DNA of 64,000 nucleotides, taken from Acidobacteriota bacterium (GTDB lineage: Bacteria > Acidobacteriota > Terriglobia > Bryobacterales > Bryobacteraceae). The translations under genes and the position numbers were made by a program. The notes under the pieces are model-generated. The model saw only the letters and a program-made list of their open reading frames with translations, searched no databases and was not told the DNA's origin. Where the stretch lies: positions 1 to 64,000 of the forward strand of contig CANIVU010000011.1 in assembly GCA_947470805.1 (NCBI GenBank), written 5' to 3'. Below, piece after piece: positions 41,548-54,853 of this stretch (positions are counted from its first letter, which is position 1; each line of letters opens with the position of its first letter).

Positions 41548-44500
41548 ATGAAACTTTGGATTTGCTCGCTTCTGGCCGCTGTCGTGGGATTCGGACAGAC
41601 CATTAATACGGTGGTGGGGACGGGGTACGTGTTCGATGGGGATGGGCGGCCGGCGGCGCAGGCTCCGTTGGGACTTACCATTTCGATGGCGATCCATCCG
41701 TTGACGAACGAGCCCTATTTCACCGATACGGACAACCATATGGTGATGCGCGTCCGCGCCGATGGTGTTTTGTTTGTGGTGGCGGGCAACGGGCGGCCGG
41801 GGTTCTCGGGCGACGGCGGGCCGGCGAAGGAAGCGTCGTTGAACACGCCGCGGCAGATGGCGTTTGACCGGCAGGGGAATCTGTTTATCGCCGATGAGGT
41901 GAACCAGCGGGTGCGGCGCGTGGGGGCCGATGGGGTGATCACAACCGTGGCGGGCAATGGTGTGCGCGGGCGGGCGGCGGAGGGCGCGGTTGCGGTGCAG
42001 GCGCCGCTGGATTATCCGCACGGGGTGGCGGTGGATTCCCGTGGGAATTTGTATATCACCGACCACTTCAACAACCAGTTGCGACGCGTGGATACGAACG
42101 GGCGGACGACCGTGTTTGCCGGTACGGGGACGAATGGGTTTAGCGGGGATGGCGGGCAGGCGACAGCCGCGAATTTAGGGACGCCTTTCGACGTGGTTTG
42201 CGACCGGGCGGATAACGTCTATTTCGTGGACGCGGCGGGGATCCGGATCCGGCGTGTGCGCACGAATGGCGTGATTGAAACGGTGGCGGGGAATGGGTCG
42301 ATTCAGTATTCGGGAGATGGCGGGAGTGCGATTCAGGCGGGGTTGGGCGGGATTGGCTCGTTGGGCGTGGATGCGCAGGGGAACCTGTATATCGGAAGCG
42401 TGACTTCACATCACATCCGGCGCGTGACGGCGAGCGATGGGCGGATTGCGGTGTATGCGGCGAATGGGTCGGCCGGGTTCAGTGGGGATAACGGGCCGGC
42501 GTTGCAGGCGCAGGTGTTTTCGCCGGAAGGGTTGGGCGTGGATGCGTCGGGGAACTTGTATATTGCCGACCGGAATAACCGCCGTGTGCGGCGGGTGACG
42601 GCGGCGGGGACGATTTCGACGATTGCGGGGAACGGGTTTAACCGGTCGTTCGTGGAGTTCGGACCGGTGCGGACGGCGAACCTGCTGCAGCCCTACGCGA
42701 TGGCCGTTGACGGGCAGGGCAGCCTGTATATCGCGGATACTTTCAACGCGCGGATCCGGAAGGTGACGACGGATGGGCGGATCAGCACGATTGCCGGGAA
42801 TGGGACGCCGGGGTATGCCGGCGATGGCGGGGCGGCGCTGCAGGCGCGGATCGACAGGCCGTTGGGGATCACGGTGGACAAGGCCGGGAACGTGTATTTC
42901 ACGCAGCCGGGGAATGGGGAGAATGTTGTTCGGAAGATTACGCCGGATGGGCGGATTTCATTGTTCGCGGGGTCGTTGAAGGCGGGCGGGGTGGTGGATA
43001 ACGTGCCGGCGCTGGAGGCGACGTTCTTTGGCGTAATTCCGATTGCTGTGGAGGAGAGCGGGTCCATTCTGGTGGGCGATGCGCTGAATCATACGATCCG
43101 GCGGATTGGAACGGATGGGCGCGTGCGGACGGTGATTGGGACGGGGAAGGCCGGGTTTTCGCCGGATGGGTCGCGGGCGGTGGGAGCGTCGATCAGCTAT
43201 CCGGGATGTGTGGTGCCGGACCGGTTGGGGAACATCTATTTTTGCGATTCGGATAATTTGCGGATTCGGAAAATTGATACGGCGGGGATTTTGACGACCG
43301 TTGTGGGGAGCGGCGGGAACGGGTTTCGAGGCGATGGCGGACCGGCGCGGGATGCGGCGATCAGCCAGCGGACGTCGCCGGTGTTGGGGGCGGATGGGTC
43401 CATTTATTTTGCGGATACTTTGAACAATCGAGTGCGGAAGGTGGATCCGTTTGGCGTGATTACGACGATTGCCGGGACGGGCGCGGCGGGGTATTCCGGG
43501 GACGGTGGATTGCCAACGGCGGCGCAGATGTTCCAGCCGCAGGCGGTGGTGTTGGATGCCAACGGGCGATTGCTGATCGCCGATACGCAGAACGACCGGA
43601 TTCGCGCGATTCTGGCCGAGGCGCCGGTGTTTGCGTTGGACAAGAGCACGGTGACGTTCCGGGTGTTGCAGGAGCGGGATGGGTCGTTGACGATTCCGCA
43701 GCAGGAGTTGAGCGTGGGGCTGCAGACTTCGCTGGATGGCGTGCCGTATGAGTCGACACTTACGGCGCTGATTCCGGGCGGCGATGAACTGTTGCGGCGA
43801 GTTGCGCGGTTGACGCCAGCGGCGGGCGTGATGCCGGCGCAGGTGAAGATTACGGCGGTGGCAAATGACCTGCCATTGGGAGCTTCATTCACGGGGACCG
43901 TGGCGGTGGCGCGATTGACGCTGCGGGCACCGAATGCGAACCCGCCGGAGCGGACGGTGACGATTCAGTTGGACGTGGCGCCGGCGCCGGAGCCGGAGTT
44001 GCGCGTGGGTTCGTCGGGGTTGCAGTTTGCCAGCGTGGCGGGCGGCGCGGCGCAGGCCGGACGGTTGCTGGTGCGGAATACGGGCGGCGGGAAGATTGCG
44101 TTTACCGTGGCCTCTTCGGTGCCGTGGCTGGTGCCGCAAACGGCGGCGGGAGTGGTGGCGGGGAATGACCCGGAGTTGGTGGAAGTTGCCGTGGCGACGG
44201 CGGGATTGGCGCCGGGCACCTATAGCGGCGCGGTGACGGTGAAGGGCGACAACGGGCAGGCGGCGACGTTGCCGGCGTCGCTCGCCGTTTCGGACCGGAA
44301 CTCGGCGATATTGTTGACGCCATCGGCGTTGAGTTTTGTCGCGATTCAGGGCGGCGGGAATCCGGCGGCGCAGGGCGTCTCGGTCGTGAATTCGGGGACT
44401 GGGGCGATGAGTTGGACGGTTGCGTCGCGAACCTTGGCGGGCGGGAATTGGTTGACGATTCCGAGCGATTCCGCTTCGGGCACGAGCACCGGTGGGCAGA

Positions 44501-46092
44501 AGGCGCCGGAGATCCCGTTCAGCGTGGATGCTTCGCGATTGGCGCCGGGGGACTATTCGGCGCTGGCGACGGTGTCGTCACCAAACTCGGCGAACCGGCA
44601 GCAGTTGGCCACGGTGTCGTTGCGCGTGTTGCCGCCCAATAGTGATGCGGTGCCGGAGGTGTCGCCGACCGGTGTGGTGTTCACGGCGGTGACCGGGGAC
44701 GAGCCCGGGTCGGCCACGTTGACGCTGACGGTGAATGGCGGCGCGCCGATTGAGTACGCCTCGGTGCGGGCCACGCTGGATGGTGTGAACTGGTTTGAAG
44801 CCGTGCCTTCGACGGGTACGCTGTCGCCCTCGCAGCCGGCGCGGATTCGATTGTTCCCGGCGCTGGCGAAGCTGCCGGTGGGAATCCGGCAGGGTGCGGT
44901 GACGATCGTATTTAATGACCGGGCGCGGACGGTGCGGACGGTTTCGATCCTGAGTATCGTGGCGCCGCAGGGTTCGGCCGGGGCCGGGAAGGCGGGCGAG
45001 CGCGAAACGTCGTCGTGCGGATCGAACGATCTGTTTGCCGAGATTACTTCGTTGCAGAAGCCGCGATTCTCGGTGCGGCCGGGCGAGACGGTGCGGGTGC
45101 GGTCGAAGATCGTCGATGGCTGCGGGCGGCCGCATGTGCCGGAGTCGGCCGGGACGGCGAGTGCGAATCTGACCGTACTGAATACCCAGGCGGTGATCAA
45201 GATGACGCACGTGGCCAATGGGGAGTGGGAGGGCGCCTACACGCCGCCGGCAAACCAGACGGGCGATATTTCTGTGCGCGTGGTGGCGGCGTTTACGCAA
45301 GGGACGAAGCTGCAACTGGGTGTGAGTGAGACGGCGACCGGATCGGTACAGGTGGCGACGGCGCCGCGGAGTCCGCAGGTGGCGGCCGGGGCGATTGTGA
45401 ACGGTGCGAGCTTCGTGGCGCAGCCGTTGGTGGCGCCGGGGCAGCTGATTTCGATCTACGGCACGGATCTGGCTGACCAGGCGCTGGCGGCGAGTTCGGT
45501 GCCGTTGTCGACCACGCTGGCCGGGACGGAGGTGCTGCTGGGTGGCGAGTCGCTGCCGCTGTTGTTTGTGAGCAGCGGGCAGATCAACGCGCAAGTTCCG
45601 TTCGGACTGGCGTTGAATTCCGAGCAGCAGATTGTCGTTCGGAAGCAGCAGGCGTTGGGTACGCCGGAGCGGATTGTTGTCGGCAACGCACAGCCGGGAA
45701 TCTTCTCCAAGAACAATAATGGCGCGGGGCAGGGCGTGGTGCTGGCGGTGCGTGCCGGCGGGGCGCAGACGTATGCCGAGCCGGGTGCGCCGGCCAGGCG
45801 CGGCGACACGATTGTGATTTATTGCAGCGGGCTGGGGCCGACAAATCCGGCGGTAACGGCGGGTGTGGCGGCGCCGTTGTCGCCGTTGTCACGCGTGGTG
45901 AGCCCGGTGCGGGTGATCATTGGCGGGGCGGAAGCGGTGGTGCAGTTTGCCGGACTGACGCCGGGTTCGGCGGGATTGTACCAGGTGAACGCTGTGATTC
46001 CGCAGGACGCGCCGTTGGGCGATCAGGTGCCGATTGTGTTGAACGTTGGCGGATTAGACAGTCCGGCGGTGACGATGGCGGTGCAGCAGTAA
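41548..46092 (+). CDS. Giant secreted NHL-repeat protein with Solibacter C-terminal domain
   Basis: A 1514-residue exported protein (signal MKLWICSLLAAVVGFGQT). Residues ~20-700 hold about a dozen NHL-type propeller blades with the pattern GLGVDASGNLYIADRNNRRVRRVT followed by TIAGNG-x-FSGDGGPA. Residues ~780-1080 contain BACON/Ig-like beta-sandwich units (VPWLVPQTAAGVVAG, MSWTVASRTLAGGNWLTI). The C-terminal ~240 residues are a TIGR03437-type domain (NGASFVAQPLVAPGQLISIYGTDLAD, GQINAQVPFGLALNSEQQIVV, GDTIVIYCSGLGPTNPA). It probably forms a surface adhesion or polymer-binding scaffold. Confidence 0.9.
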   Translation: MKLWICSLLAAVVGFGQTINTVVGTGYVFDGDGRPAAQAPLGLTISMAIHPLTNEPYFTDTDNHMVMRVRADGVLFVVAGNGRPGFSGDGGPAKEASLNTPRQMAFDRQGNLFIADEVNQRVRRVGADGVITTVAGNGVRGRAAEGAVAVQAPLDYPHGVAVDSRGNLYITDHFNNQLRRVDTNGRTTVFAGTGTNGFSGDGGQATAANLGTPFDVVCDRADNVYFVDAAGIRIRRVRTNGVIETVAGNGSIQYSGDGGSAIQAGLGGIGSLGVDAQGNLYIGSVTSHHIRRVTASDGRIAVYAANGSAGFSGDNGPALQAQVFSPEGLGVDASGNLYIADRNNRRVRRVTAAGTISTIAGNGFNRSFVEFGPVRTANLLQPYAMAVDGQGSLYIADTFNARIRKVTTDGRISTIAGNGTPGYAGDGGAALQARIDRPLGITVDKAGNVYFTQPGNGENVVRKITPDGRISLFAGSLKAGGVVDNVPALEATFFGVIPIAVEESGSILVGDALNHTIRRIGTDGRVRTVIGTGKAGFSPDGSRAVGASISYPGCVVPDRLGNIYFCDSDNLRIRKIDTAGILTTVVGSGGNGFRGDGGPARDAAISQRTSPVLGADGSIYFADTLNNRVRKVDPFGVITTIAGTGAAGYSGDGGLPTAAQMFQPQAVVLDANGRLLIADTQNDRIRAILAEAPVFALDKSTVTFRVLQERDGSLTIPQQELSVGLQTSLDGVPYESTLTALIPGGDELLRRVARLTPAAGVMPAQVKITAVANDLPLGASFTGTVAVARLTLRAPNANPPERTVTIQLDVAPAPEPELRVGSSGLQFASVAGGAAQAGRLLVRNTGGGKIAFTVASSVPWLVPQTAAGVVAGNDPELVEVAVATAGLAPGTYSGAVTVKGDNGQAATLPASLAVSDRNSAILLTPSALSFVAIQGGGNPAAQGVSVVNSGTGAMSWTVASRTLAGGNWLTIPSDSASGTSTGGQKAPEIPFSVDASRLAPGDYSALATVSSPNSANRQQLATVSLRVLPPNSDAVPEVSPTGVVFTAVTGDEPGSATLTLTVNGGAPIEYASVRATLDGVNWFEAVPSTGTLSPSQPARIRLFPALAKLPVGIRQGAVTIVFNDRARTVRTVSILSIVAPQGSAGAGKAGERETSSCGSNDLFAEITSLQKPRFSVRPGETVRVRSKIVDGCGRPHVPESAGTASANLTVLNTQAVIKMTHVANGEWEGAYTPPANQTGDISVRVVAAFTQGTKLQLGVSETATGSVQVATAPRSPQVAAGAIVNGASFVAQPLVAPGQLISIYGTDLADQALAASSVPLSTTLAGTEVLLGGESLPLLFVSSGQINAQVPFGLALNSEQQIVVRKQQALGTPERIVVGNAQPGIFSKNNNGAGQGVVLAVRAGGAQTYAEPGAPARRGDTIVIYCSGLGPTNPAVTAGVAAPLSPLSRVVSPVRVIIGGAEAVVQFAGLTPGSAGLYQVNAVIPQDAPLGDQVPIVLNVGGLDSPAVTMAVQQ

Positions 46093-46140: not shown

Positions 46141-46944
46141 ATGGTGAGCGCCGCCGTAGTATTGGATTTGGAAGCAGAGAAGGCAAAGGTCGAAGATGCA
46201 CTTCGCGAGGTGCTGCGGGGGGGCCATTGCTTGGGTGCGTCTGGTGTCGCGGGCGCGATGGAGTACTCCGTTTTGGGTGGCGGGCAACGGCTGAGGCCGC
46301 TGTTGGCGCTGCGGGTAGGGAAGGTGCTTGGCGTCGAGCGCGACTTGGTGATGCGTGGGGCGGTGGCGGTTGAGCTGCTGCACTGCGCGTCGTTAATCGT
46401 GGACGATTTGCCGTGTATGGACGACGAAGCGTTCCGGCGCGGACGGCCCACGGTGCACCGGGAGTTTGGCGAATCGACGGCGGTACTGGCGGCGTTCAGC
46501 CTGGTGGCGTTGGCGGCGAGGCAGACCGTGGAGGGTATTGGAGATCCGTATGTACTGGAGCAGATGGTGGCGTTTCAGCTGAAGGTGCTGCAGGTATTAG
46601 ATTGCAACAACCTGGTGGGCGGGCAGGCGATGGACCTGGCGGGCGGCGGCTCTTCGCGGCAGTTGGCGGAGAAGAAGACGGCTCCGTTGTTTGCATTGGC
46701 GGCGCGAGCCGGGGTGATCGGCGTTGGCGTCGATCCGGTGGAACGGCAGGCCGCGCTGCGGTTCGGGCATGAGTTCGGCGTGGCATATCAGCTGATGGAT
46801 GATCTGGCGGATGGTGAGTTGCGGCTGCGGGCACCGTTTGAGACGCAGATGGAACGGACGCGCGGGATACTGGATGTTTTTGGGTACCGTGGCGCAGGGT
46901 TGAAGGAGATGTTAGATAACCTCTATGGCAAATCGCTCGCGTAA
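46141..46944 (+). CDS. crtE: Geranylgeranyl diphosphate synthase
   Basis: A 267-residue trans-polyprenyl synthase that makes the C20 precursor of carotenoids. The first aspartate-rich motif is LIVDDLPCMDDEAFRRGRPTVH (near residue 90); the second is AYQLMDDLADG (near residue 220). The size and the DDx4D form of the first motif fit type II/III bacterial GGPP synthases. It is the first gene of the carotenoid operon. The desaturase start overlaps its 3' end by 20 bases, indicating coupled translation. About 48 bases separate it from the NHL protein upstream, too short to hide another gene. Confidence 0.9.
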   Translation: MVSAAVVLDLEAEKAKVEDALREVLRGGHCLGASGVAGAMEYSVLGGGQRLRPLLALRVGKVLGVERDLVMRGAVAVELLHCASLIVDDLPCMDDEAFRRGRPTVHREFGESTAVLAAFSLVALAARQTVEGIGDPYVLEQMVAFQLKVLQVLDCNNLVGGQAMDLAGGGSSRQLAEKKTAPLFALAARAGVIGVGVDPVERQAALRFGHEFGVAYQLMDDLADGELRLRAPFETQMERTRGILDVFGYRGAGLKEMLDNLYGKSLA

Positions 46945-48415
46945 GGTTGCCGTTATTGGCAGTGGATTTGGCGGGCTGGGTACTGCCGTGCGATTGGCGT
47001 CGCGGGGATACGATGTGGAGCTGTTAGAGGCGCGCGACATGCTGGGCGGGCGCGCGTATGTCTACCGGCAGGACGGGTTCACTTTTGACGCGGGTCCGAC
47101 CGTTATTACGGCGCCGTTCATGTTGGATGAGCTGTTTGCCGGGGCTGGGAAGAAGACCTCGGACTATGTGAAGATTGTGCCGGTAGATCCTTTCTACCGG
47201 ATTGAATTCTCGGATGGCCGCCACTTCGAATATAACGGTGATGAGCGGGAGACTGAGCGGAAAGTGGCTGCGTTTTCGCCGGGCGATGTGGATGGCTACA
47301 AGGCCATGATCCTGGCGGCGAAGGACATTTTCCAGAAGGGCTTCGTCGAACTGAGCGACGTGCCGTTTCTGAAGTTTATGGATATGGTGAAGATTGCGCC
47401 GGAGCTGGTGCGGTTGCAATCCCACAAGACGGTTTTTCAGTTCGTGAAGAGCTATGTGAAAGACCCGATGCTGCAGCGGGTGTTCAGTTTTCATCCGTTG
47501 TTGGTGGGCGGGAACCCGTTTCAGACGACGTCCATTTACGCGTTGATTCACCATTTGGAACGGCAGTGGGGCGTGCACTACGCGATGGGTGGGACGGGCG
47601 CGGTGGTGGATGGCTTGGGTCGATTGTTCCGTGAGTTGGGCGGCAAAGTTCGGTTGAGCACACCGGTGAAGCGGATCCTGACAGAGGGTGGACGGGCGGT
47701 GGGCGTGGAGACGGAGGCGGGCGAGACGATTGCTGCCGACGCGGTGGTGTCGAATGCCGATGTGGCGAATACCTATCGCAAGATGGTGCCGGCTGCGGAC
47801 CGCCGCCGTTGGACCGATTCGAAGCTCGACAGCATGCGGTACAGTATGGGGCTGTTTGTTATCTATTTCGGCACGAAGGGGTCGTATTCCGATATCAAGC
47901 ACCATACGATTCTGCTGGGCGAACGGTACGAGGCGTTGCTGACCGACATCTTCCAGAAGAAGATTTTGGGCGAGGATTTTTCGATCTATCTGCACCGTCC
48001 GACGGCTACCGATCCTTCGATGGCGCCCGAGGGCCACGACTGTTTTTATGCGTTGGTTCCGGTGCCGAATCAGTTGAGCGGGATCGATTGGACTACCGAG
48101 GCGAAGCCGTTCCGAGATCGCGTGATGGCTTACATGGAGAAGCATTACCTGCCCGGGTTGCAGTCGCGGTTGGTGACGGAACGGTTGTTCACGCCGCTGG
48201 ATTTCGAGACGACGTTGAACACGTATCGCGGCTCCGGGTTTTCGTTTGAGCCCATCTTTACGCAGTCGGCGTGGTTCCGGCCGCACAACGAGAGCGAGGA
48301 CGTGAAGGGGCTGTACTTCGTCGGCGCGGGCACACATCCGGGCGCGGGCGTGCCGGGCGTGCTGTCATCGGCTAAGATCGTGGAAAAGCTGGTATGCGAC
48401 CGGTTGCCCGTATAG
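46925..48415 (+). CDS. crtI: Phytoene desaturase (CrtI type)
   Basis: A 496-residue FAD-dependent desaturase converting phytoene to coloured polyenes. The N-terminal dinucleotide motif is VAVIGSGFGGLGTAVRLASRGYDVELLEARDMLGGRAY; the C-terminal signature is YFVGAGTHPGAGVPGVLSSAKIV. The middle DAGPTVITAPFMLDELF is family-typical. It overlaps the GGPP synthase by 20 bases and the phytoene synthase by 22 bases. The number of desaturation steps, and thus lycopene or neurosporene as product, cannot be read here. No lycopene cyclase gene was recognised in the window. Confidence 0.93.
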   Translation: MANRSRKVAVIGSGFGGLGTAVRLASRGYDVELLEARDMLGGRAYVYRQDGFTFDAGPTVITAPFMLDELFAGAGKKTSDYVKIVPVDPFYRIEFSDGRHFEYNGDERETERKVAAFSPGDVDGYKAMILAAKDIFQKGFVELSDVPFLKFMDMVKIAPELVRLQSHKTVFQFVKSYVKDPMLQRVFSFHPLLVGGNPFQTTSIYALIHHLERQWGVHYAMGGTGAVVDGLGRLFRELGGKVRLSTPVKRILTEGGRAVGVETEAGETIAADAVVSNADVANTYRKMVPAADRRRWTDSKLDSMRYSMGLFVIYFGTKGSYSDIKHHTILLGERYEALLTDIFQKKILGEDFSIYLHRPTATDPSMAPEGHDCFYALVPVPNQLSGIDWTTEAKPFRDRVMAYMEKHYLPGLQSRLVTERLFTPLDFETTLNTYRGSGFSFEPIFTQSAWFRPHNESEDVKGLYFVGAGTHPGAGVPGVLSSAKIVEKLVCDRLPV

Positions 48416-49281
48416 ACGCCGAATGGAACCGCCACGCGGCGGAGGCGACGGCGCGCGGGTCGAAGAGCTTCTATTTCGCGACGCGGTTTTTTCCTCCGGA
48501 GTTGGCCGCCTCGGCGTATGCCGTTTACTGGTTCTGCCGGACGACCGATGACATTGTGGATGAGAATCCCGATATAACGGCGGCGCGGCTGGAGTTGGAT
48601 GAGTGGCGGGACGGGTTGAAACGAGCACTGGCTGGGAGCACGGATTGTCCGGTGATTCTTCGACATTTTGCGTGGGCCTGTGAGCGGCATGCGATTCCGG
48701 CTGAGTATGCGTTCGAGTTGATTGAAGGCATGCGGATGGATCTGGAGGGCGTGCGGTATCGGAACTTCGATGAATTGCGCGTGTTCTGTTATCGCGTGGC
48801 GAGCACGGTGGGGCTGATGATGTCGCACGTGATTGGTTTTGAAGGTGACGCGTTGCCGTATGCCGAGGACCTTGGGGTGGCGATGCAATTGACCAATATT
48901 CTGCGCGACGTGGGCGAGGATCTGGGGCGCGGACGAATCTATTTGCCGGCGGAGGAGATTGCGCAGTTTGGGTACTCCGAGACGGAGTTGCGACGGGCCG
49001 AGCGGACGCCGGAGTTTGTGCAATTGATGCGGTTTCAGGCGGAGCGGGCGAGGTTCTACTACGGGAAGTCGATGCCGGGGATTGCGATGTTGCGGCCCGA
49101 GGGGCGGTTCGCTGTGGAGATCGCGGCTCGCGTGTATAGCGGAATCCTGACGCGGATTGAAGAGATGGATTACGACGTTTTCGCGCAGCGGGCCGTGGTG
49201 CCGGCGTGGCGGAAATACGGGATTACGGCGCGGGCACTGGCGCGGCCTGCGTTGGGAAGGCTGAAGTTTTGGGGGAGTTGA
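48394..49281 (+). CDS. crtB: Phytoene/squalene synthase
   Basis: A 295-residue head-to-head prenyl synthase that condenses two GGPP to phytoene. Aspartate motifs are WFCRTTDDIVDENPD (about residue 45) and LTNILRDVGEDLGRGRIYLP (about 170). The start codon overlaps the desaturase 3' end by 22 bases. The following molybdoenzyme probably begins in the TTGA overlap at the stop codon. The downstream glycosyltransferase and acyltransferase indicate that the carotenoid end product is decorated. A squalene-synthase-like activity is less likely given the crtE/crtI neighbours. Confidence 0.93.
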   Translation: MRPVARIDAEWNRHAAEATARGSKSFYFATRFFPPELAASAYAVYWFCRTTDDIVDENPDITAARLELDEWRDGLKRALAGSTDCPVILRHFAWACERHAIPAEYAFELIEGMRMDLEGVRYRNFDELRVFCYRVASTVGLMMSHVIGFEGDALPYAEDLGVAMQLTNILRDVGEDLGRGRIYLPAEEIAQFGYSETELRRAERTPEFVQLMRFQAERARFYYGKSMPGIAMLRPEGRFAVEIAARVYSGILTRIEEMDYDVFAQRAVVPAWRKYGITARALARPALGRLKFWGS

Positions 49282-50687
49282 TTCGGCGGGCGATTGAGCG
49301 CGGATCGTTGGCGACGGCCTTTGGGTTGGCGGTGCACTATGTGGCGTTCTACTTGTTCGGCGTGCCGTTGTGGACGGAGGTGATCGGCGAGTGGATCATG
49401 GCGCGGACGCCGAATACGTATTCGGTGTGGCTGCTGGCGCAGATGGGAGCTTGGGCGAAGCCGTTCGCGTTGACGGGCGGGCTGGCGGCGTTGGGATTTG
49501 TGATGTCACTGGCGGCTTGTTTCTCGGGGTGGCGGGCGTCGATGATCGCTTTTGGCGGCGCTGTGGCGTATGGATTTGTGTTTGGATATCCGGTGGGTTG
49601 GGAGACCTTTACGTTTTGGTTCCCGGCGTGGACGATGTTGGAGTGGTTGGAACGGAAGGCCGTGGCTCCGGTGGGTGGGCGGCGATTGGCGTTGCAGGCG
49701 TTGATGGGCGGGGCGACGGTGGCGGTGGCGGGCGAGAGCTTCTTGCGGGATGAACGATTGGCGCGGGGAGCGGTGAAACCGGTGCGCTTGTGGTCGTTCT
49801 CGTTGCCGGAAGAGCGGTTTGGCGTGGGCTGGGTGCGTAAGGCGGTGACGCAGATTGGCCAGCACTACACGATGTCGAAGAACAGCGTGGACCCAGCCAT
49901 CGATCCGGCTTCCTGGACGTTGCGCGTCACCGTGGACGGGGCGCAGATTGCATCGTTGCGCTACACGCAGTTGCTGCAGGTGCCTCGGCAGCAGCGCTAC
50001 GTGACGTTGCGCTGCGTATCGAACACGTTGAAGAGCGACCTGATGGGGACGGCGGAGTGGAGCGGGTTTCTGTTGAGCCAGATCGTGGACCGGGCGAAGA
50101 TTCCGGATCAGGTTCGCGAAGTGGCGTTTATTGGCGTCGACGGGCACGGCGATTCGCTCCCGGTTGAGTATGCCTTTAGCGATGAGGTGATGCTGGCCGT
50201 TGGCATGAATGGGGAGACCCTGAACCGCGCGCATGGCTTCCCGGTGCGGTTGTTGTGTCCGCGTTATTACGGGTTCAAGAACGTGAAGTGGATGGGCGAA
50301 ATTGCCTTCGTTACGAAGCCGTATTTCGGAACGTGGCCGAAGATGGGGTACACGAAAGAGCCGCTGGTGAAGGTGGCGTCGTTTATCGACAAGGCCCGGC
50401 GGGAGGGGAACAAGGTGACGGTTGGCGGTGTGTCCTATGCGGGGAGCCGGGGGATCAAGGCGGTCGAAGTCCGATTGGACGGCGGTCCGTGGTTGCCGGC
50501 GGAGATGGAGAATCCGTTGTCACTCTATAGCTGGACACGCTGGATGATTGAGTTGGACGCGCCCGCCGGCGCTGCGCTGGTAGAGGCGCGGGCGCAGGAT
50601 GGCAACGGGGCGTGGCAGTTGGACGTGGAGACGCCGTTGTTCCCTAGCGGCGTTGGCGGTCCAACCGTGCGTAAATTAAGTATCTAA
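49278..50687 (+). CDS. Membrane-anchored sulfite-oxidase-like molybdoenzyme
   Basis: A 470-residue protein. The start is uncertain; TTG at 49278, overlapping the phytoene synthase stop (TTGA), is the most likely because no ATG or GTG with a ribosome site lies near. About four hydrophobic helices occupy the first ~150 residues (AFGLAVHYVAFYLFGVPLWTEV, KPFALTGGLAALGFVMSLAAC, TFTFWFPAWTMLEW). The rest is a sulfite-oxidase-like molybdopterin domain with the metal-ligand cysteine in VTLRCVSNTLKSDLMG (about residue 250) and the dimerisation half with MGEIAFVTKPYFGTWPKMGY. Its place inside a carotenoid operon is unusual and suggests a redox step on the pigment or in the membrane. Confidence 0.82.
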   Translation: MIRRAIERGSLATAFGLAVHYVAFYLFGVPLWTEVIGEWIMARTPNTYSVWLLAQMGAWAKPFALTGGLAALGFVMSLAACFSGWRASMIAFGGAVAYGFVFGYPVGWETFTFWFPAWTMLEWLERKAVAPVGGRRLALQALMGGATVAVAGESFLRDERLARGAVKPVRLWSFSLPEERFGVGWVRKAVTQIGQHYTMSKNSVDPAIDPASWTLRVTVDGAQIASLRYTQLLQVPRQQRYVTLRCVSNTLKSDLMGTAEWSGFLLSQIVDRAKIPDQVREVAFIGVDGHGDSLPVEYAFSDEVMLAVGMNGETLNRAHGFPVRLLCPRYYGFKNVKWMGEIAFVTKPYFGTWPKMGYTKEPLVKVASFIDKARREGNKVTVGGVSYAGSRGIKAVEVRLDGGPWLPAEMENPLSLYSWTRWMIELDAPAGAALVEARAQDGNGAWQLDVETPLFPSGVGGPTVRKLSI

Positions 50688-50692
50688 GCTCT

Positions 50693-51757
50693 ATGCCCGT
50701 TCTCACTATCGCCATCGCCCTCGCCCTTGGAATGGTTGTCTATTTGCGCAAGGCTCGTTTCCATTACGAGCGGCTGCCGAAGATTCCCTATGTGGCCGCG
50801 GCGCCGTTGCCGGAGGTCGCCGTCATTGTCCCTGCGCGGAATGAAGAGGCCAATATTGGCAAGCTGCTGGCATCATTTCCGCCGGACTTGGTGACAGTCG
50901 TTGATGACCACTCTGAAGACCGTACGGCGGAGATTGCGCGGGAGTGCGATGTGCGCGTCATCACGGCGCCTGTGCTGGCCGATGGGAAGATGGGCAAGCC
51001 CAATGCGTGCATGGCCGGGGCGGAGGCGACGGAGTCGGAATGGCTGCTGTTCGTCGATGCCGATACGCATTACGCTCGCGTGTTTTTGCCGTCGCTAGTG
51101 CAGTATGCCGTGGAACAGGACCTGGACATGGTGAGCGTATTCCTGCAACAGGAGACCGTCACCCTGGCGGAGAAGATTCTGTTGCCCTATGCGTTTGCGC
51201 TGTATTTCACCGGTGTCAACAGCGCGCGCGTGAACGGCCGCGCGCCGAGCGAGTGGCTGGCCAATGGGCAGTGCCTGTTGATCACCCGGGCGGCGTATTT
51301 GAAAATGGGCGGGCATGCGGCGGTGGATGCATCGGTGATTGAAGACGTGGCGCTCGCGAAGTTGGCCGCGTCGAAGGGCCTGCGCACGCGGGTGACGAGA
51401 GCGGAGCACATGGGCGCCGTGCGCATGTACGATTCGTTCGGCGCCATTCTGCGAGGGTTCGAAAAGAACTCGTTCCGCTTCTTGCGCGAGAACCTTTTCA
51501 CCGGTGTGCAGGTGGTGGTCGCATCGATTTTGCTGACGTCGTGGCTGCCGGTGCTGGCGCTTTTGATCTGGCAAGGGTACACGAGGCAGGCGGTGTTGTT
51601 CGCGTTGTTGCCGACAGTTGTCCTGTTCCCTTGGTACCGAAGCGCGGCGGCGCTGCTGGCTCCGGTGGCGATCTATCTATTCCAGTTCGTGGCCCTGAAT
51701 TCGATGTTCAAAACGCTGACCAGGCAGAAGTCCGTGTGGAAGGGCCGCGAGGTTTGA
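50693..51757 (+). CDS. Family 2 glycosyltransferase (carotenoid glucosyltransferase-like)
   Basis: A 354-residue membrane-associated GT2. The nucleotide-sugar fold starts with VAVIVPARNEEANIGKLLAS, followed by VVDDHSEDRTAEIA, WLLFVDADTHY (DxD) and SVIEDVALAKLA (ED). Hydrophobic segments at both ends (VLTIAIALALGMVVYLR and the 250-340 region) anchor it. The architecture matches CrtQ-type enzymes that glucosylate carotenoid carboxylates, and HpnB-type transferases. It follows the molybdoenzyme by five bases and is followed by an acyltransferase whose TTG start overlaps its stop. It probably adds a sugar to the carotenoid. Confidence 0.85.
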   Translation: MPVLTIAIALALGMVVYLRKARFHYERLPKIPYVAAAPLPEVAVIVPARNEEANIGKLLASFPPDLVTVVDDHSEDRTAEIARECDVRVITAPVLADGKMGKPNACMAGAEATESEWLLFVDADTHYARVFLPSLVQYAVEQDLDMVSVFLQQETVTLAEKILLPYAFALYFTGVNSARVNGRAPSEWLANGQCLLITRAAYLKMGGHAAVDASVIEDVALAKLAASKGLRTRVTRAEHMGAVRMYDSFGAILRGFEKNSFRFLRENLFTGVQVVVASILLTSWLPVLALLIWQGYTRQAVLFALLPTVVLFPWYRSAAALLAPVAIYLFQFVALNSMFKTLTRQKSVWKGREV

Positions 51758-52455
51758 AGCAGTACCCGGTGGCGTGGGGACCGGTGTTTGCGCTGACACC
51801 GCACATCGGCCAGCGCACTCGCTATTCGTTGCGGCGGTTTACTGAGGATTCTGTAAAAGTCCTTGCGCCCGCGCCGGAAGTAAGTGGATTGGAGTTGTTG
51901 CCGGAGTCGCCGAAGTTCGTATTGGCCGCCAATCATTATCAGCGAAAGGGCCTGTGGATTCTGCATCCGTGCAGTGTGATCACGGTGGCCCTACAGCGTC
52001 ACTATGGATTGGAAGATCCTCCGGTTCGCTGGGTGGTAACGGCGAACTGGCCGCCGTGGAAGTTGGGGCCGTTGACGATTCCATCGCCCGGCGACTGGCT
52101 GCTCCCCCGCGTGGCGCACGCGCTGCACTGCTATCCGGTGAGCTTCGCCGGCACCGATCCGGCGCTGACGGCGCGCAGCTATCGGGCGTTGTTGAAAGAC
52201 CTCGATCGGCCGCTCGGTTTGTTCCCAGAAGGGGTCGCCGGCACCGCATTTCACGAGGCCGATCCGCTCCCAGGCGTTGAGCGCCTCCTGCTTCTATTGG
52301 CCAAGAAGAACTGGCCCGTCGTCCCCTGCCATATCTCAGAAAACGAAAACCGGCTGGCCGTCCAATTTCGGGAGACGATCCAGCCGGCCGAGTTGTTGCG
52401 CGCCGGGGAATCCGCGGCGCGCCTGGTGATGCAGCGAATTAGAACGTCAGCGTGA
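51754..52455 (+). CDS. Lyso-lipid/carotenoid acyltransferase (PlsC-like)
   Basis: A 233-residue protein. The probable start is TTG at 51754, overlapping the TGA of the glycosyltransferase gene; the longer frame (to 51541) only overlaps that gene. Motifs resemble the glycerol-phosphate acyltransferase family: [14 protein letters not shown] (NH motif, although the fourth-residue aspartate is not present) and [13 protein letters not shown] (PEG motif). A paired GT2 and acyltransferase recalls staphyloxanthin-type CrtQ/CrtO decoration, in which a glucosyl carotenoid is esterified with a fatty acid. The 3' end overlaps the convergent superoxide dismutase gene by 17 bases. Confidence 0.72.
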
Positions 52456-53074
52456 AGAGGCCATTGTAGATGGCTTCGGCTTGGTTCCAGTTGACCACGC
52501 TCCAGAAGGCGTCCACATAATTGGGGCGCAGGTTCTGATACTTGAGGTAATAGGCGTGTTCCCACACATCCAGCCCGATGATGGCGGTCTTGCCTTCCAT
52601 GAGCGGGGTGTCCTGATTGGCGGTCGAGCAGATCTCGATCGTGCCGTCAGCCTTCTTAGCGAGCCACGCCCAACCGGAGCCGAAGCGGCCGATCGCGGCG
52701 GCTTTGAACTGCGCCTTGAAGTTATCGAAGCTGCCGAAGGTGGCATCGATCGCCGCGGCCAACTGGCCGATCGGCGCGCCGCCGCCGCCCGCGTTTTCCG
52801 GCGCCATAATCTGCCAGAACAGCGAGTGGTTCAGATGGCCACCGCCATTGTTGCGCACGGCGCCTTTCTTGGCGTCCGGCACGATGGCCAGGTTGTTGGC
52901 CAGCAGCTCTTCAAGGGTCTTGCCCTCAAGCGCCGCATCGCCAGCAACCGCGTTGTTCAGGTTGGTGACATAGGCGTTGTGGTGCTTGGTCCGGTGGATG
53001 ACCATCGTCGCTTCGTCGATATAGGGTTCCAACGCGTTGTCCGCGTAGGGCAGGGCAGGAAGTGTAAATGCCAT
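52439..53074 (-). CDS. sodA: Manganese-type superoxide dismutase
   Basis: A 211-residue cytoplasmic dismutase. The start at 53074 ([20 protein letters not shown]) is chosen: AAGGAG lies just upstream, while the 52 codons before it are not conserved. Metal ligands are in [24 protein letters not shown] and [15 protein letters not shown]. The combination [10 protein letters not shown] with TANQDTPLM points to the Mn-specific class rather than Fe, though cambialistic use cannot be excluded. It lies between the carotenoid operon and gatA; its 3' end overlaps the acyltransferase by 17 bases. Confidence 0.93.
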
Positions 53075-53109
53075 ATCTGTATTCTCCTTCGAACTCGTTA
53101 GATGCGCGA

Positions 53110-54552
53110 TCAGGCCGAAAAGCCGCCGCTCATTTCGTATTGATGGGCAATTCGGAACATGAGATCTTCCGAAAAATGTTTGGTTAGAATCTGCATGCCG
53201 ACGGGCAGGCCTTCGGCCGTTGTGCCGCAAGGAACGTTCATGCAGGGGATACCGGCCAGACTGCCGGTGATGGTGTAGATATCGCTCAAATACATCTGCA
53301 GCGGGTCGTTCACCTTCTCGCCAAGCTTGAAGGCGGGGAAGGGGGACACCGGCGTGATGAGCGCGTCGACTTTCTCAAACGCCTGCGCAAAATCGCGCGT
53401 GATCAGCGAACGAACGCGTTGCGCTTTGATGTAATAGGCGTCGTAGTACCCGTGGCTCAGCACGTATGCGCCCAGCATGATACGCCGCTTGGCCTCCGCG
53501 CCGAAGCCTTCGCCGCGGGAGTTCTTGTACATGTCGATCAGCGTCTCGGCCTTGGCCGAACGCGTCGTGAACCGCACGCCGTCGAACCGCGAAAGATTGG
53601 CGCTCACCTCGGCCGTACAGATGATGTAGTAAGCCTCGATCGCGTATTCCGTATGGGGCAGGGAAACGTCGACGATCTCGCAACCCTGCTTCTTCAACAC
53701 CTCGATGCCGGCCTGGATGCGATCACCCGTCTCATTCGCCAACCCAGCGAAGTACTCTTTTGGAAGTCCGATTTTCAGGCCCTGCAACGGCTGCTGCATC
53801 GCCGCGGCGTAGTCCTGCACCTCATGCAACGCGCTTGTCGCATCGCGTGAATCGCGCCCGGCGATCGCCGTCAGCAACGTCGCCGAATCGGCCACTGTGC
53901 GTGAGAACGGTCCGATATGATCGAGCGATGACGCGAAGGCCACCAGCCCATACCGCGACACGCGCCCATACGTCGGCGTCACGCCCACGCAGCCGCAGAA
54001 CGAGGCAGGCTGACGGATCGACCCGCCCGTATCCGAACCCAGCGAAACCACCGCCGTGCCCTGCGCCACCACCGCCGCTGAACCACCGCTCGACCCGCCC
54101 GGCACACGGTCCAACGCCACCGGATTCCGTACCGGCCCGTAGGCGGAATTCTCGTTCGAAGACCCCATCGCGAACTCGTCGCAATTGGCTTTGCCGATCA
54201 TCACCCCGCCGGCCGCTTCCAGCCGCTCAATCGCTGTCGCGTCGTACGGCGGAATGTAATGTTCCAACAGCTTCGACCCGCAAGTGGTCCGCACGCCGCG
54301 CGTCGAGATGACATCCTTCACGCCCACCGGCACACCGGCCAGCACGCCCGGATCCTCGCCCGCGGCGAGCTTGGCATCGACGGCCCGCGCCGCCGCCAGC
54401 GCGCGCTCGTCGCTGAAGGTCAAATAGGCATTGGTCTTCGGGTTCTCAGCCTTGGCAAACGCGAGTGCTTCCTGCGCCAGTTCCACCGCGCTGAATGTCC
54501 GGTCCGTCAACCCTTTGCGAACCGAGGAAATTGTAAGAGACGGGATGTTCAT
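53110..54552 (-). CDS. gatA: Asp-tRNA(Asn)/Glu-tRNA(Gln) amidotransferase subunit A
   Basis: A 480-residue amidase-signature protein that releases ammonia for the transamidation of Glu-tRNA(Gln). The Ser-cisSer-Lys triad is visible: lysine in VGVKDVIST (about residue 75), the [31 protein letters not shown] block with both serines (about 150-175). [20 protein letters not shown] is the GatA signature. The ATG at 54552 is chosen; it follows the gatC stop by one base. An upstream TTG (54564) would overlap gatC. gatB was not found in the window, so it lies elsewhere in the genome. Confidence 0.95.
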
Positions 54553-54553
54553 A

Positions 54554-54853
54554 CTAACGCTCAATCACTCGCGGCACTTTGTAATAGCCCTGGCCCGACA
54601 CCAGCGCATTCGCCAACGCCTCGGCGTTGGTCAAACACGGCCGCGGTTCGTCCTCGCGCAGCGTGGCGGTCTCTTCGGCCGCGAACAACACCTGCGCCAT
54701 CGGCTCCACGCCATCGGTGTTCAGCTCGTTGAGCTTGTCGATGTGCGTCAGAATATCGCTCAAATCGTGGGCGTATTGATGAATCTCGGCTTCAGTCAAA
54801 GTCAGATTCGCCAGGCCGGCCACATACCGTACCTGCTCTTCGGTTAGCTTCAC
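54554..54853 (-). CDS. gatC: Asp-tRNA(Asn)/Glu-tRNA(Gln) amidotransferase subunit C
   Basis: A 99-residue stabilising subunit of the GatCAB complex. It begins MKLTEEQVRYVAGLANLTLTEAEI and contains the family pattern ILTHIDKLNELNTDGVEPMAQV followed by LREDEPRPCLTNAEALANA. It overlaps the DUF721 gene by four bases upstream and is followed by gatA after one base, so dciA-gatC-gatA read as one transcript. Confidence 0.95.
   Translation of the reverse strand: MKLTEEQVRYVAGLANLTLTEAEIHQYAHDLSDILTHIDKLNELNTDGVEPMAQVLFAAEETATLREDEPRPCLTNAEALANALVSGQGYYKVPRVIER

What the first reader, a model, noticed from the sequence alone, without database searches (positions are those of the whole stretch)
46141..52455. 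Carotenoid operon containing a membrane molybdoenzyme plus sugar and acyl transferases
crtE-crtI-crtB are followed in the same transcript by a sulfite-oxidase-like molybdopterin domain on a four-helix membrane anchor, a GT2 and a PlsC-like acyltransferase. The GT2/acyltransferase pair implies an acylated glycosyl carotenoid, but a molybdoenzyme between crtB and the glycosyltransferase is not a standard pigment gene. It may introduce an oxygen function used for glycosylation, or protect the pigment membrane. No cyclase or classical hydroxylase is present.
Basis: partly seen in the sequence, partly recalled or inferred. Interest (0 to 1): 0.7.

Follow-up and report, generated by a model that had tools for sequence, protein, structure and literature searches.

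The report
Molybdoenzyme locked into carotenoid pigment operon
In one family of soil and water bacteria the genes of one kind of carotenoid pigment operon come with a gene for a molybdenum enzyme of unknown target, which may add the oxygen needed to finish the pigment in place of the usual enzyme; this remains to be tested in the laboratory.

Summary
A six-gene operon, crtE-crtI-crtB-molybdoenzyme-GT2-acyltransferase, lies at 46141-52455 (Bryobacteraceae, Acidobacteriota). Of 257 genomes searched in the order, 48 carry an orthologue above 190 bits; in 45 it follows crtB directly, two sit at contig breaks, one is broken. All 20 genomes with this CrtI among 121 have it. In two genomes whose locus lost crtI and crtB the molybdoenzyme gene is damaged. 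Relatives with another carotenoid cluster carry the known hydratase CruF instead (10 of 10, against one partial match in 20). The window genome and five other type-A genomes match neither CruF nor CrtC families; one, G476, also lacks P450 and FA_hydroxylase matches. The Mo-ligand cysteine and a twin-arginine motif are invariant. Best reading: a dedicated tailoring enzyme that introduces the oxygen function that GT2 and/or the acyltransferase modify, perhaps by water-derived allylic hydroxylation. That chemistry is inferred. Against it: one genus keeps the enzyme without GT2; substrate, electron acceptor, carotenoid chain length and pigment are unknown.

The parts
46141..46944 (+). crtE, short-chain polyprenyl diphosphate synthase (product length not settled)
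   Evidence: PF00348 119.9 bits; NCBIfam FPP synthase 143.7 and CrtE 121.4 bits, both below cut-offs 275 and 460
46925..48415 (+). crtI, phytoene desaturase family
   Evidence: TIGR02734 629.9 bits, cut-off 238.1
48394..49281 (+). crtB, squalene/phytoene synthase family
   Evidence: PF00494 273.8 bits; HpnD 236.8 and cyanobacterial CrtB 223.6 bits, both below cut-offs
49278..50687 (+). Membrane-anchored sulfite-oxidase-family molybdoenzyme; TTG start overlaps the crtB stop
   Evidence: PF00174 130.2 bits, cut-off 24; orthologues in 48 of 257 genomes of the order
49308..49655 (+). N-terminal hydrophobic membrane region of the molybdoenzyme (residues ~11-126; number of helices uncertain)
   Evidence: hydropathy, low-confidence model
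49680..49685 (+). Codons of R135-R136, probable internal Tat signal
   Evidence: invariant in 34 of 34 aligned rows, 29 of them distinct sequences
50013..50015 (+). Codon of Cys246, predicted molybdenum ligand
   Evidence: invariant in 34 of 34 rows; aligned with the Cys of own-genome paralogue L001
50349..50351 (+). Codon of Tyr358, equivalent of the SorA active-site tyrosine
   Evidence: Y in 30, F in 4 of 34 rows; aligned to the SorA residue that is Y in 2ca3 and F in 2c9x
50693..51757 (+). GT2 glycosyltransferase, HpnB/CruG-like
   Evidence: PF00535 58.7 bits; HpnB 131.5 and CruG 104.3 bits, both below cut-offs
51754..52455 (+). PlsC-like acyltransferase
   Evidence: PF01553 below cut-off; model matches PlsC and PatA folds; found in 24 of 121 family genomes, 22 of which carry the molybdoenzyme

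Best explanation
The operon makes a carotenoid that is oxygenated and then glycosylated and/or acylated. The molybdoenzyme is a dedicated tailoring enzyme of this pathway: anchored in the membrane and probably exported by Tat, it acts on an end of the desaturated carotenoid (lycopene-type, if the pathway is C40) and introduces the oxygen function that GT2 and/or the acyltransferase then modify, in the place that CruF holds in the other carotenoid cluster of the same bacterial family. The likeliest chemistry is a water-dependent oxidation with electrons passed to the respiratory chain, for example allylic hydroxylation of a terminal methyl group of the psi end. Shown: gene order, linkage, alternation with CruF, conservation of the Mo site, damage when crt genes go. 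Inferred: one transcript, substrate, reaction, electron acceptor, periplasmic location.
For: Directly behind crtB in 45 of 48 genomes with an orthologue; the other three are two contig breaks and one deletion. All 20 genomes with this CrtI type among 121 carry it. In G509 and G618 crtI and crtB are gone from the locus, a piece of the start of crtE runs into a shortened molybdoenzyme gene, and that gene is damaged in both (frame broken; in G509 Arg stands at the Mo-ligand Cys). CruF family: 10 of 10 type-B and 1 of 20 type-A genomes, the one being a partial match behind the operon. G000, G399, G472, G436 and G476, with full operons, and G438, cut by a contig end, match neither PF04240 nor PF07143; G476 also matches neither PF00067 nor PF04116. 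Crt-linked Mo domains form one clade, 14 of 14, support 1.0, stem 0.93. Five residues after the Mo Cys, where paralogue L001 has Arg, it has Leu or Ile. The acyltransferase is nearly confined to genomes with the molybdoenzyme, 22 of 24. Chemical precedent in another Mo family: water-dependent hydroxylation of a terminal allylic methyl of an isoprenoid side chain (PMC11061730, passages).
Against: To my knowledge (recalled) no sulfite-oxidase-family enzyme hydroxylates carbon. The Mo domain is predicted on the other side of the membrane from cytosolic sugar and acyl donors. Genus g264 keeps the enzyme without GT2. Tyr358 is Phe in 4 of 34 rows. The window genome has one P450 and three FA_hydroxylase-family matches that could hydroxylate a carotenoid. 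PF07143 proteins occur in 16 of 23 genomes with the molybdoenzyme against 47 of 98 without, so they are if anything commoner with it. No electron-transfer partner is encoded in the operon. C40 against C30 is open: FPP synthase and HpnD models score slightly above CrtE and CrtB models. CrtW/CrtR, CrtA and other oxygenase families were not searched.
Confidence: 0.46

Rival explanations
1. The enzyme is a repair or protection factor: like MsrP it reduces oxidised sulfur groups, or oxidised carotenoids and lipids, at the outer face of the membrane, and is kept in the operon because pigment and repair serve the same photo-oxidative stress.
For: Sulfite-oxidase family, predicted periplasmic location; MsrP belongs to this family (PMC9370002, passages). 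A Fe/Mn superoxide dismutase gene lies next to the operon in the window.
Against: MsrP model score 51 against cut-off 207; no MsrQ-like gene among the six operon genes; no orthologue in the ten type-B genomes, which would need protection as much; damaged where crtI and crtB were lost; the superoxide dismutase neighbour was found in only 4 of 42 loci searched, two contigs each held twice.
Confidence: 0.2
2. The oxygen is introduced by another, unlinked enzyme, and the molybdoenzyme does a later redox step on the pigment, such as oxidising a hydroxyl to an aldehyde, ketone or acid, or acts on a precursor.
For: One P450 and three FA_hydroxylase-family matches in the window genome; PF07143 proteins in 16 of 23 genomes with the molybdoenzyme. 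A Mo hydroxylase of another family oxidises the alcohol that it makes to the aldehyde (PMC11061730, passages). The enzyme persists without GT2.
Against: G476, with a full operon, has no match to PF00067, PF04116, PF04240 or PF07143; other oxygenase families were not searched.
Confidence: 0.22
3. It is a sulfite dehydrogenase that happens to sit in the operon.
For: Nearest solved structures by sequence are SorA and vertebrate sulfite oxidase.
Against: SorA, SorT and SoxC models 99.7, 71 and 93.2 bits against cut-offs 600, 570 and 420; Leu or Ile at the Arg position five after the Cys; no cytochrome gene in the operon; tied to crt genes.
Confidence: 0.05

Closest known systems
Carotenoid acyl-glycoside pathways with CruF, CruC and CruD (Chloroflexus, Salinibacter, Thermomicrobium)
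   Same: crtB and crtI with end-group oxygenation, glycosyltransferase and acyltransferase; genes named in PMC4155588 and PMC2615216 (passages)
   Different: No CruF here; a molybdoenzyme stands in that slot. GT2 and acyltransferase reach no curated family cut-off beyond the broad GT2 models
SorA/SorT sulfite dehydrogenases and MsrP (sulfite oxidase family)
   Same: PF00174 domain, Mo-ligand Cys, mostly the active-site Tyr
   Different: Membrane region plus internal twin-arginine motif, Leu/Ile at the Arg position, scores far below the equivalog cut-offs, own long-stemmed clade
Steroid C26 dehydrogenases of Sterolibacterium
   Same: Parallel of chemistry only: water-dependent hydroxylation of an allylic terminal methyl of an isoprenoid chain (PMC11061730, passages)
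   [quoted passage not shown] no homology claimed
Type-B carotenoid cluster of other genomes of the same family
   Same: crtB, crtI and crtE in one cluster, GT2 in 9 of 10 genomes
   Different: Has a second CrtI/CrtD-like desaturase and CruF, and in the example scanned (G435) an alpha/beta hydrolase; no molybdoenzyme and no acyltransferase match in the 11 loci

Membership tests
Sulfite oxidase family (PF00174) | Domain score above the curated cut-off | tested here: met
   130.2 bits, cut-off 24
Sulfite oxidase family (PF00174) | Mo-ligand cysteine | tested here: met
   C246 in 34 of 34 rows
Sulfite dehydrogenase (SorA/SorT/SoxC) | NCBIfam equivalog cut-offs | tested here: not met
   99.7/600, 71/570, 93.2/420 bits
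Sulfite dehydrogenase (SorA/SorT/SoxC) | Substrate-binding arginine five residues after the Cys (role recalled, from no call) | tested here: not met
   Leu in 28, Ile in 6 of 34 rows; Arg in paralogue L001
MsrP methionine sulfoxide reductase | NCBIfam equivalog cut-off | tested here: not met
   51 bits, cut-off 207
MsrP methionine sulfoxide reductase | MsrQ haem partner in the same operon (recalled) | tested here: not met
   none among the six operon genes; the rest of the genome was not searched for it
Carotenoid 1,2-hydratase CruF or CrtC | PF04240 or PF07143 | tested here: not met
   the protein matches only PF00174 at E 0.001; no match in genome G000
Carotenoid glycosyltransferase CruG | NCBIfam CruG cut-off | tested here: not met
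   104.3 bits, cut-off 600
Carotenoid glycosyltransferase CruC and acyltransferase CruD | Orthology to the Chlorobium enzymes | not tested
   no CruC or CruD model appeared among the hits and no reference sequence was at hand
PlsC-like acyltransferases | Pfam PF01553 cut-off | tested here: not met
   17.1 bits, cut-off 23
PlsC-like acyltransferases | Shared fold | tested here: met
   5kym E 1.3e-5, probability 1.00, but TM-score only 0.45 and model pLDDT 72
Phytoene desaturase CrtI | TIGR02734 cut-off | tested here: met
   629.9 bits, cut-off 238.1
Geranylgeranyl diphosphate synthase CrtE and phytoene synthase CrtB (C40 pathway) | NCBIfam equivalog cut-offs | tested here: inconclusive
   CrtE 121.4 against 460 and CrtB 223.6 against 550; FPP synthase 143.7 and HpnD 236.8, also below their cut-offs
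Mo-dependent carotenoid hydroxylase (proposed) | Activity on a carotenoid | not testable with these tools
   needs expression and LC-MS

The most novel reading that the evidence does not exclude
A sulfite-oxidase-family molybdoenzyme has been recruited as a new, non-homologous class of carotenoid oxygenating enzyme: it inserts water-derived oxygen into the psi end of an acyclic carotenoid (allylic hydroxylation) without molecular oxygen, in place of the hydratase CruF in Bryobacteraceae. As far as I know it would be the first C-H hydroxylation in this Mo family and the first molybdenum step in carotenoid synthesis.
Probability: 0.27. Interest if true: 0.9.

Novelty: new variant of a known kind. 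Interest (0 to 1): 0.68.

Why it matters
Some bacteria make carotenoid acyl glycosides although no gene for an oxygenation step is recognised: in Rhodothermus marinus no CrtC or CruF homologue was found (PMC5822342, passages), and in Thermomicrobium roseum the genes for 2,2' hydroxylation are unidentified (PMC2615216, passages). A molybdoenzyme fixed in a crt operon is a concrete candidate of a new kind for that step, at least in Bryobacteraceae, and can be tested in laboratory E. coli. If it hydroxylates carbon, it extends the chemistry of a Mo enzyme family known mainly for sulfite, sulfoxide and nitrate.

Tried and rejected
Structure of the molybdoenzyme: AlphaFold2 on 15 orthologues gave pLDDT 59 and pTM 0.48; not used for a fold search or for claims about the pocket.

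Thermus plasmid hit H20, followed because Thermus plasmids carry crtB: the gene lies beside a sigma/anti-sigma pair and urea-uptake and urease genes, and in that record crtB is some 170-200 kb away. I did not cross the 626 records with a molybdoenzyme match against the 231 with a crtB match.

Neighbours of the nearest non-crt relatives: five loci mapped, ten proteins of four of them scanned. Two loci share CHAD-domain and Mg-chelatase-type AAA genes; no hint of a substrate.

PF07143 (CrtC) as the missing hydratase: in 63 of 121 family genomes; 16 of 23 with the molybdoenzyme, 5 of 10 type-B, 42 of the other 88. At most a weak link to the operon; none in the window genome.

CrtI relatives elsewhere in the phylum: in the 396-genome sample 13 genomes have one at 51-55% identity; none of the 13 loci (5 to 18 kb) has a molybdoenzyme or acyltransferase match.

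Acyltransferase outside genomes with the molybdoenzyme: G506 and G440 only. Both matches lie at or near contig ends, in G506 beside a GT2 piece, so they may be cut operons.

In-frame stop reported for the G436 orthologue: the frame read from the locus has none inside.

Literature: the listings showed no paper that joins a molybdoenzyme to a carotenoid operon. The library holds open-licence papers only; one search matched 7,095 papers and listed 10. Papers in which I saw passages: PMC4155588, PMC8502411, PMC5462960, PMC11061730, PMC9370002, PMC2889829, PMC2615216, PMC5822342; all others only as listings.
Full report
WHAT IS THERE. Six genes lie on the + strand at 46141-52455: crtE, crtI, crtB, a PF00174 molybdoenzyme, a GT2 and a small acyltransferase. 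They overlap by 20, 22 and 4 bases, then comes a gap of 5 and an overlap of 4, so one transcript is likely (not measured). crtB ends in TTGA with the TTG start of the molybdoenzyme (49278), and GT2 ends in TTGA with the TTG start of the acyltransferase (51754). The window is the start of contig C11 of an 8.7-Mb genome with nine PF00174 matches, this being one. The family is named from the titles of related records: Bryobacterales, Bryobacteraceae and other Acidobacteria.

LINKAGE. In the 121-genome family sample 23 genomes have an orthologue above 190 bits; the next other genome drops to 105 bits. A CrtI of the same type (68-100% identity; two of them cut by contig ends) occurs in 20 genomes, and all 20 have the molybdoenzyme (Fisher p 5e-20, which treats related genomes as independent). 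The search of the order (257 genomes) gives 48 genomes above 190 bits, all of this family; the 20 genomes of the two other families have none (best 104 bits). Neighbourhoods: crtB lies directly upstream in 45 of 48. Of the other three, G438 starts at a contig end, G413 is split over two contigs with crtI on the contig of its N-terminal part, and G509 has a deletion. GT2 lies directly downstream in 43 of 48; the five without it are all of genus g264. The acyltransferase follows in 43 of 48; the exceptions are three genomes of g279 (in the two that were searched it sits elsewhere), G509, and G570, whose contig ends inside GT2. Below 190 bits, G600 has the operon cut by a contig end, and G618 is treated below. 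In the 396-genome phylum sample the best hit outside the family is 37% identical over the Mo domain, and none of the 29 non-own loci fetched there has a crt match within the 1.5 kb held. CrtI relatives at 51-55% in 13 phylum genomes have no molybdoenzyme in their loci.

DECAY TOGETHER. In G509 (L172) and G618 (L242) crtI and crtB are missing from the locus, and a piece of the start of crtE (weak in G509, E 0.03; E 1e-8 in G618) lies directly before a shortened molybdoenzyme. In both the remaining molybdoenzyme is damaged: the frame is broken, and in G509 Arg stands at the Mo-ligand Cys. Two cases are few, but both suggest an enzyme without use once the carotenoid genes are gone.

ALTERNATION WITH CruF. 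Ten genomes of the family sample have a different cluster, type B. I picked them as the genomes with two CrtI matches above 150 bits and none of the type-A kind; the matches are 26-32% identical. Three genomes with single matches of 115-136 bits (G482, G418, G511) and weaker ones were not counted. In the compact example G435 the cluster reads crtB, crtI, alpha/beta hydrolase, crtE, GT2, a CrtD-like desaturase, CruF. All ten have a PF04240 (CruF) match; of the 20 type-A genomes one has, G462, and that is partial (profile positions 98-199 of 209; only residues 129-203 of a 275-residue CruF aligned) about 0.55 kb behind the type-A operon. Fisher p 3.7e-7, not corrected for kinship. Four further genomes have PF04240 without either cluster (G398, G456, G461, G495). 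Genus g253 holds both types: G584 type A and G492 type B, each on one contig. The 11 type-B loci have no molybdoenzyme or acyltransferase match; GT2 is present in nine of the ten genomes.

WHAT ELSE COULD SUPPLY THE OXYGEN. The window genome matches neither PF04240 nor PF07143; the same holds for G399, G472, G436, G476 and G438. PF07143 occurs in 16 of 23 genomes with the molybdoenzyme and 47 of 98 without. Seven type-A genomes were searched for P450 and FA_hydroxylase: the window genome has one and three matches, G476 none of either. So G476 carries a full operon (L185) and matches none of four oxygenating families. CrtW/CrtR, CrtA and further CrtI-like oxidases were not searched.

THE ENZYME. 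Cys246 and R135-R136 are invariant in 34 of 34 aligned rows, 29 of them distinct sequences; Tyr358 is Y in 30 and F in 4. The profile aligns Tyr358 with the SorA tyrosine that is Y in 2ca3 and F in 2c9x. Five residues after the Cys, where own-genome paralogue L001 has Arg, the crt clade has Leu (28) or Ile (6); that this Arg binds sulfite in known enzymes is recalled. The twin arginine reads RRxFL or RRxLL in several orthologues and is followed by a hydrophobic stretch, which suggests Tat export of the Mo domain behind the membrane helices; this is inference. The one membrane-region histidine looked at, H20, is H in 25 of 34 rows, so nothing points to a bound haem. In a tree of 50 Mo domains the 14 crt-linked ones form one clade (support 1.0, stem 0.93) among related oxidoreductases, several with an N-terminal hydrophobic region. 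dN/dS against two relatives is 0.066 and 0.187, under purifying selection but at the upper end of the six genes (0.02-0.19). Pairwise distances of five operon genes correlate at 0.87-0.99, as expected if the operon is inherited as one.

PARTNERS AND CHAIN LENGTH. GT2 is nearest to HpnB and CruG models, below both cut-offs. The acyltransferase has no curated family; its model (pLDDT 72) matches PlsC and the mycobacterial acyltransferase PatA at TM-scores below 0.5. C40 or C30 is not settled: CrtE and CrtB models score slightly below FPP synthase and HpnD models, all under their cut-offs. That the residue five before the first aspartate motif of crtE is Ala, as in known geranylgeranyl synthases, favours C40, but this rule is recalled.

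MECHANISM. Published carotenoid acyl-glycoside pathways name a hydratase, a glycosyltransferase and an acyltransferase (PMC4155588, PMC2615216; for C30, PMC8502411; passages only). Here the molybdoenzyme occupies the hydratase slot. Mo enzymes of another family hydroxylate a terminal allylic methyl of an isoprenoid chain with water (PMC11061730), and the psi end of lycopene has the same grouping. I therefore rank water-dependent oxygenation of the carotenoid end first. The g264 operons without GT2 suggest that the acyltransferase can act on the new oxygen function directly, or that an unrelated transferase took over. A later redox step and protective repair are the main rivals.

VERDICT. Real, strongly conserved, found in this family alone among the genomes searched (396 of the phylum, 257 of the order, and the named-genome scan), and not described in the papers listed to me. 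The new part is the component, so I file it as a new variant of a known kind; if the chemistry is as proposed it would be more. On checking I lowered the best explanation from 0.48 to 0.46 and raised the later-step rival from 0.20 to 0.22, because PF07143 turned out to be somewhat commoner with the operon than without.

Noticed in passing
52439-53230 (-), 53110-54564 (-), 54554-54853 (-): Fe/Mn superoxide dismutase, an amidase-family gene (probably gatA) and gatC face the operon; superoxide dismutase and amidase are shared only by L068/L244 and L069/L245, each pair one contig, among 42 loci searched.
   Followed up: partly
41548-46092 (+): A 1514-aa NHL-repeat protein with a BACON-like domain ends 48 bases before crtE on the same strand; only the nearest relatives share it.
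   Followed up: partly
L128:2635-3579: Type-B carotenoid clusters contain an alpha/beta hydrolase of unknown role between crtI and crtE (scanned in G435; homologues in six of the other type-B loci).
   Followed up: no
L133:12425-12979 (G462): A CruF-like partial reading frame lies about 0.55 kb behind a type-A operon.
   Followed up: partly
L238/L239 (G579) and L240/L241 (G569): Two copies of the operon in one assembly: duplication or mixed strains.
   Followed up: no
L175, L176: Nearest non-crt relatives of the enzyme lie near CHAD-domain and Mg-chelatase-type AAA genes in two genomes.
   Followed up: no
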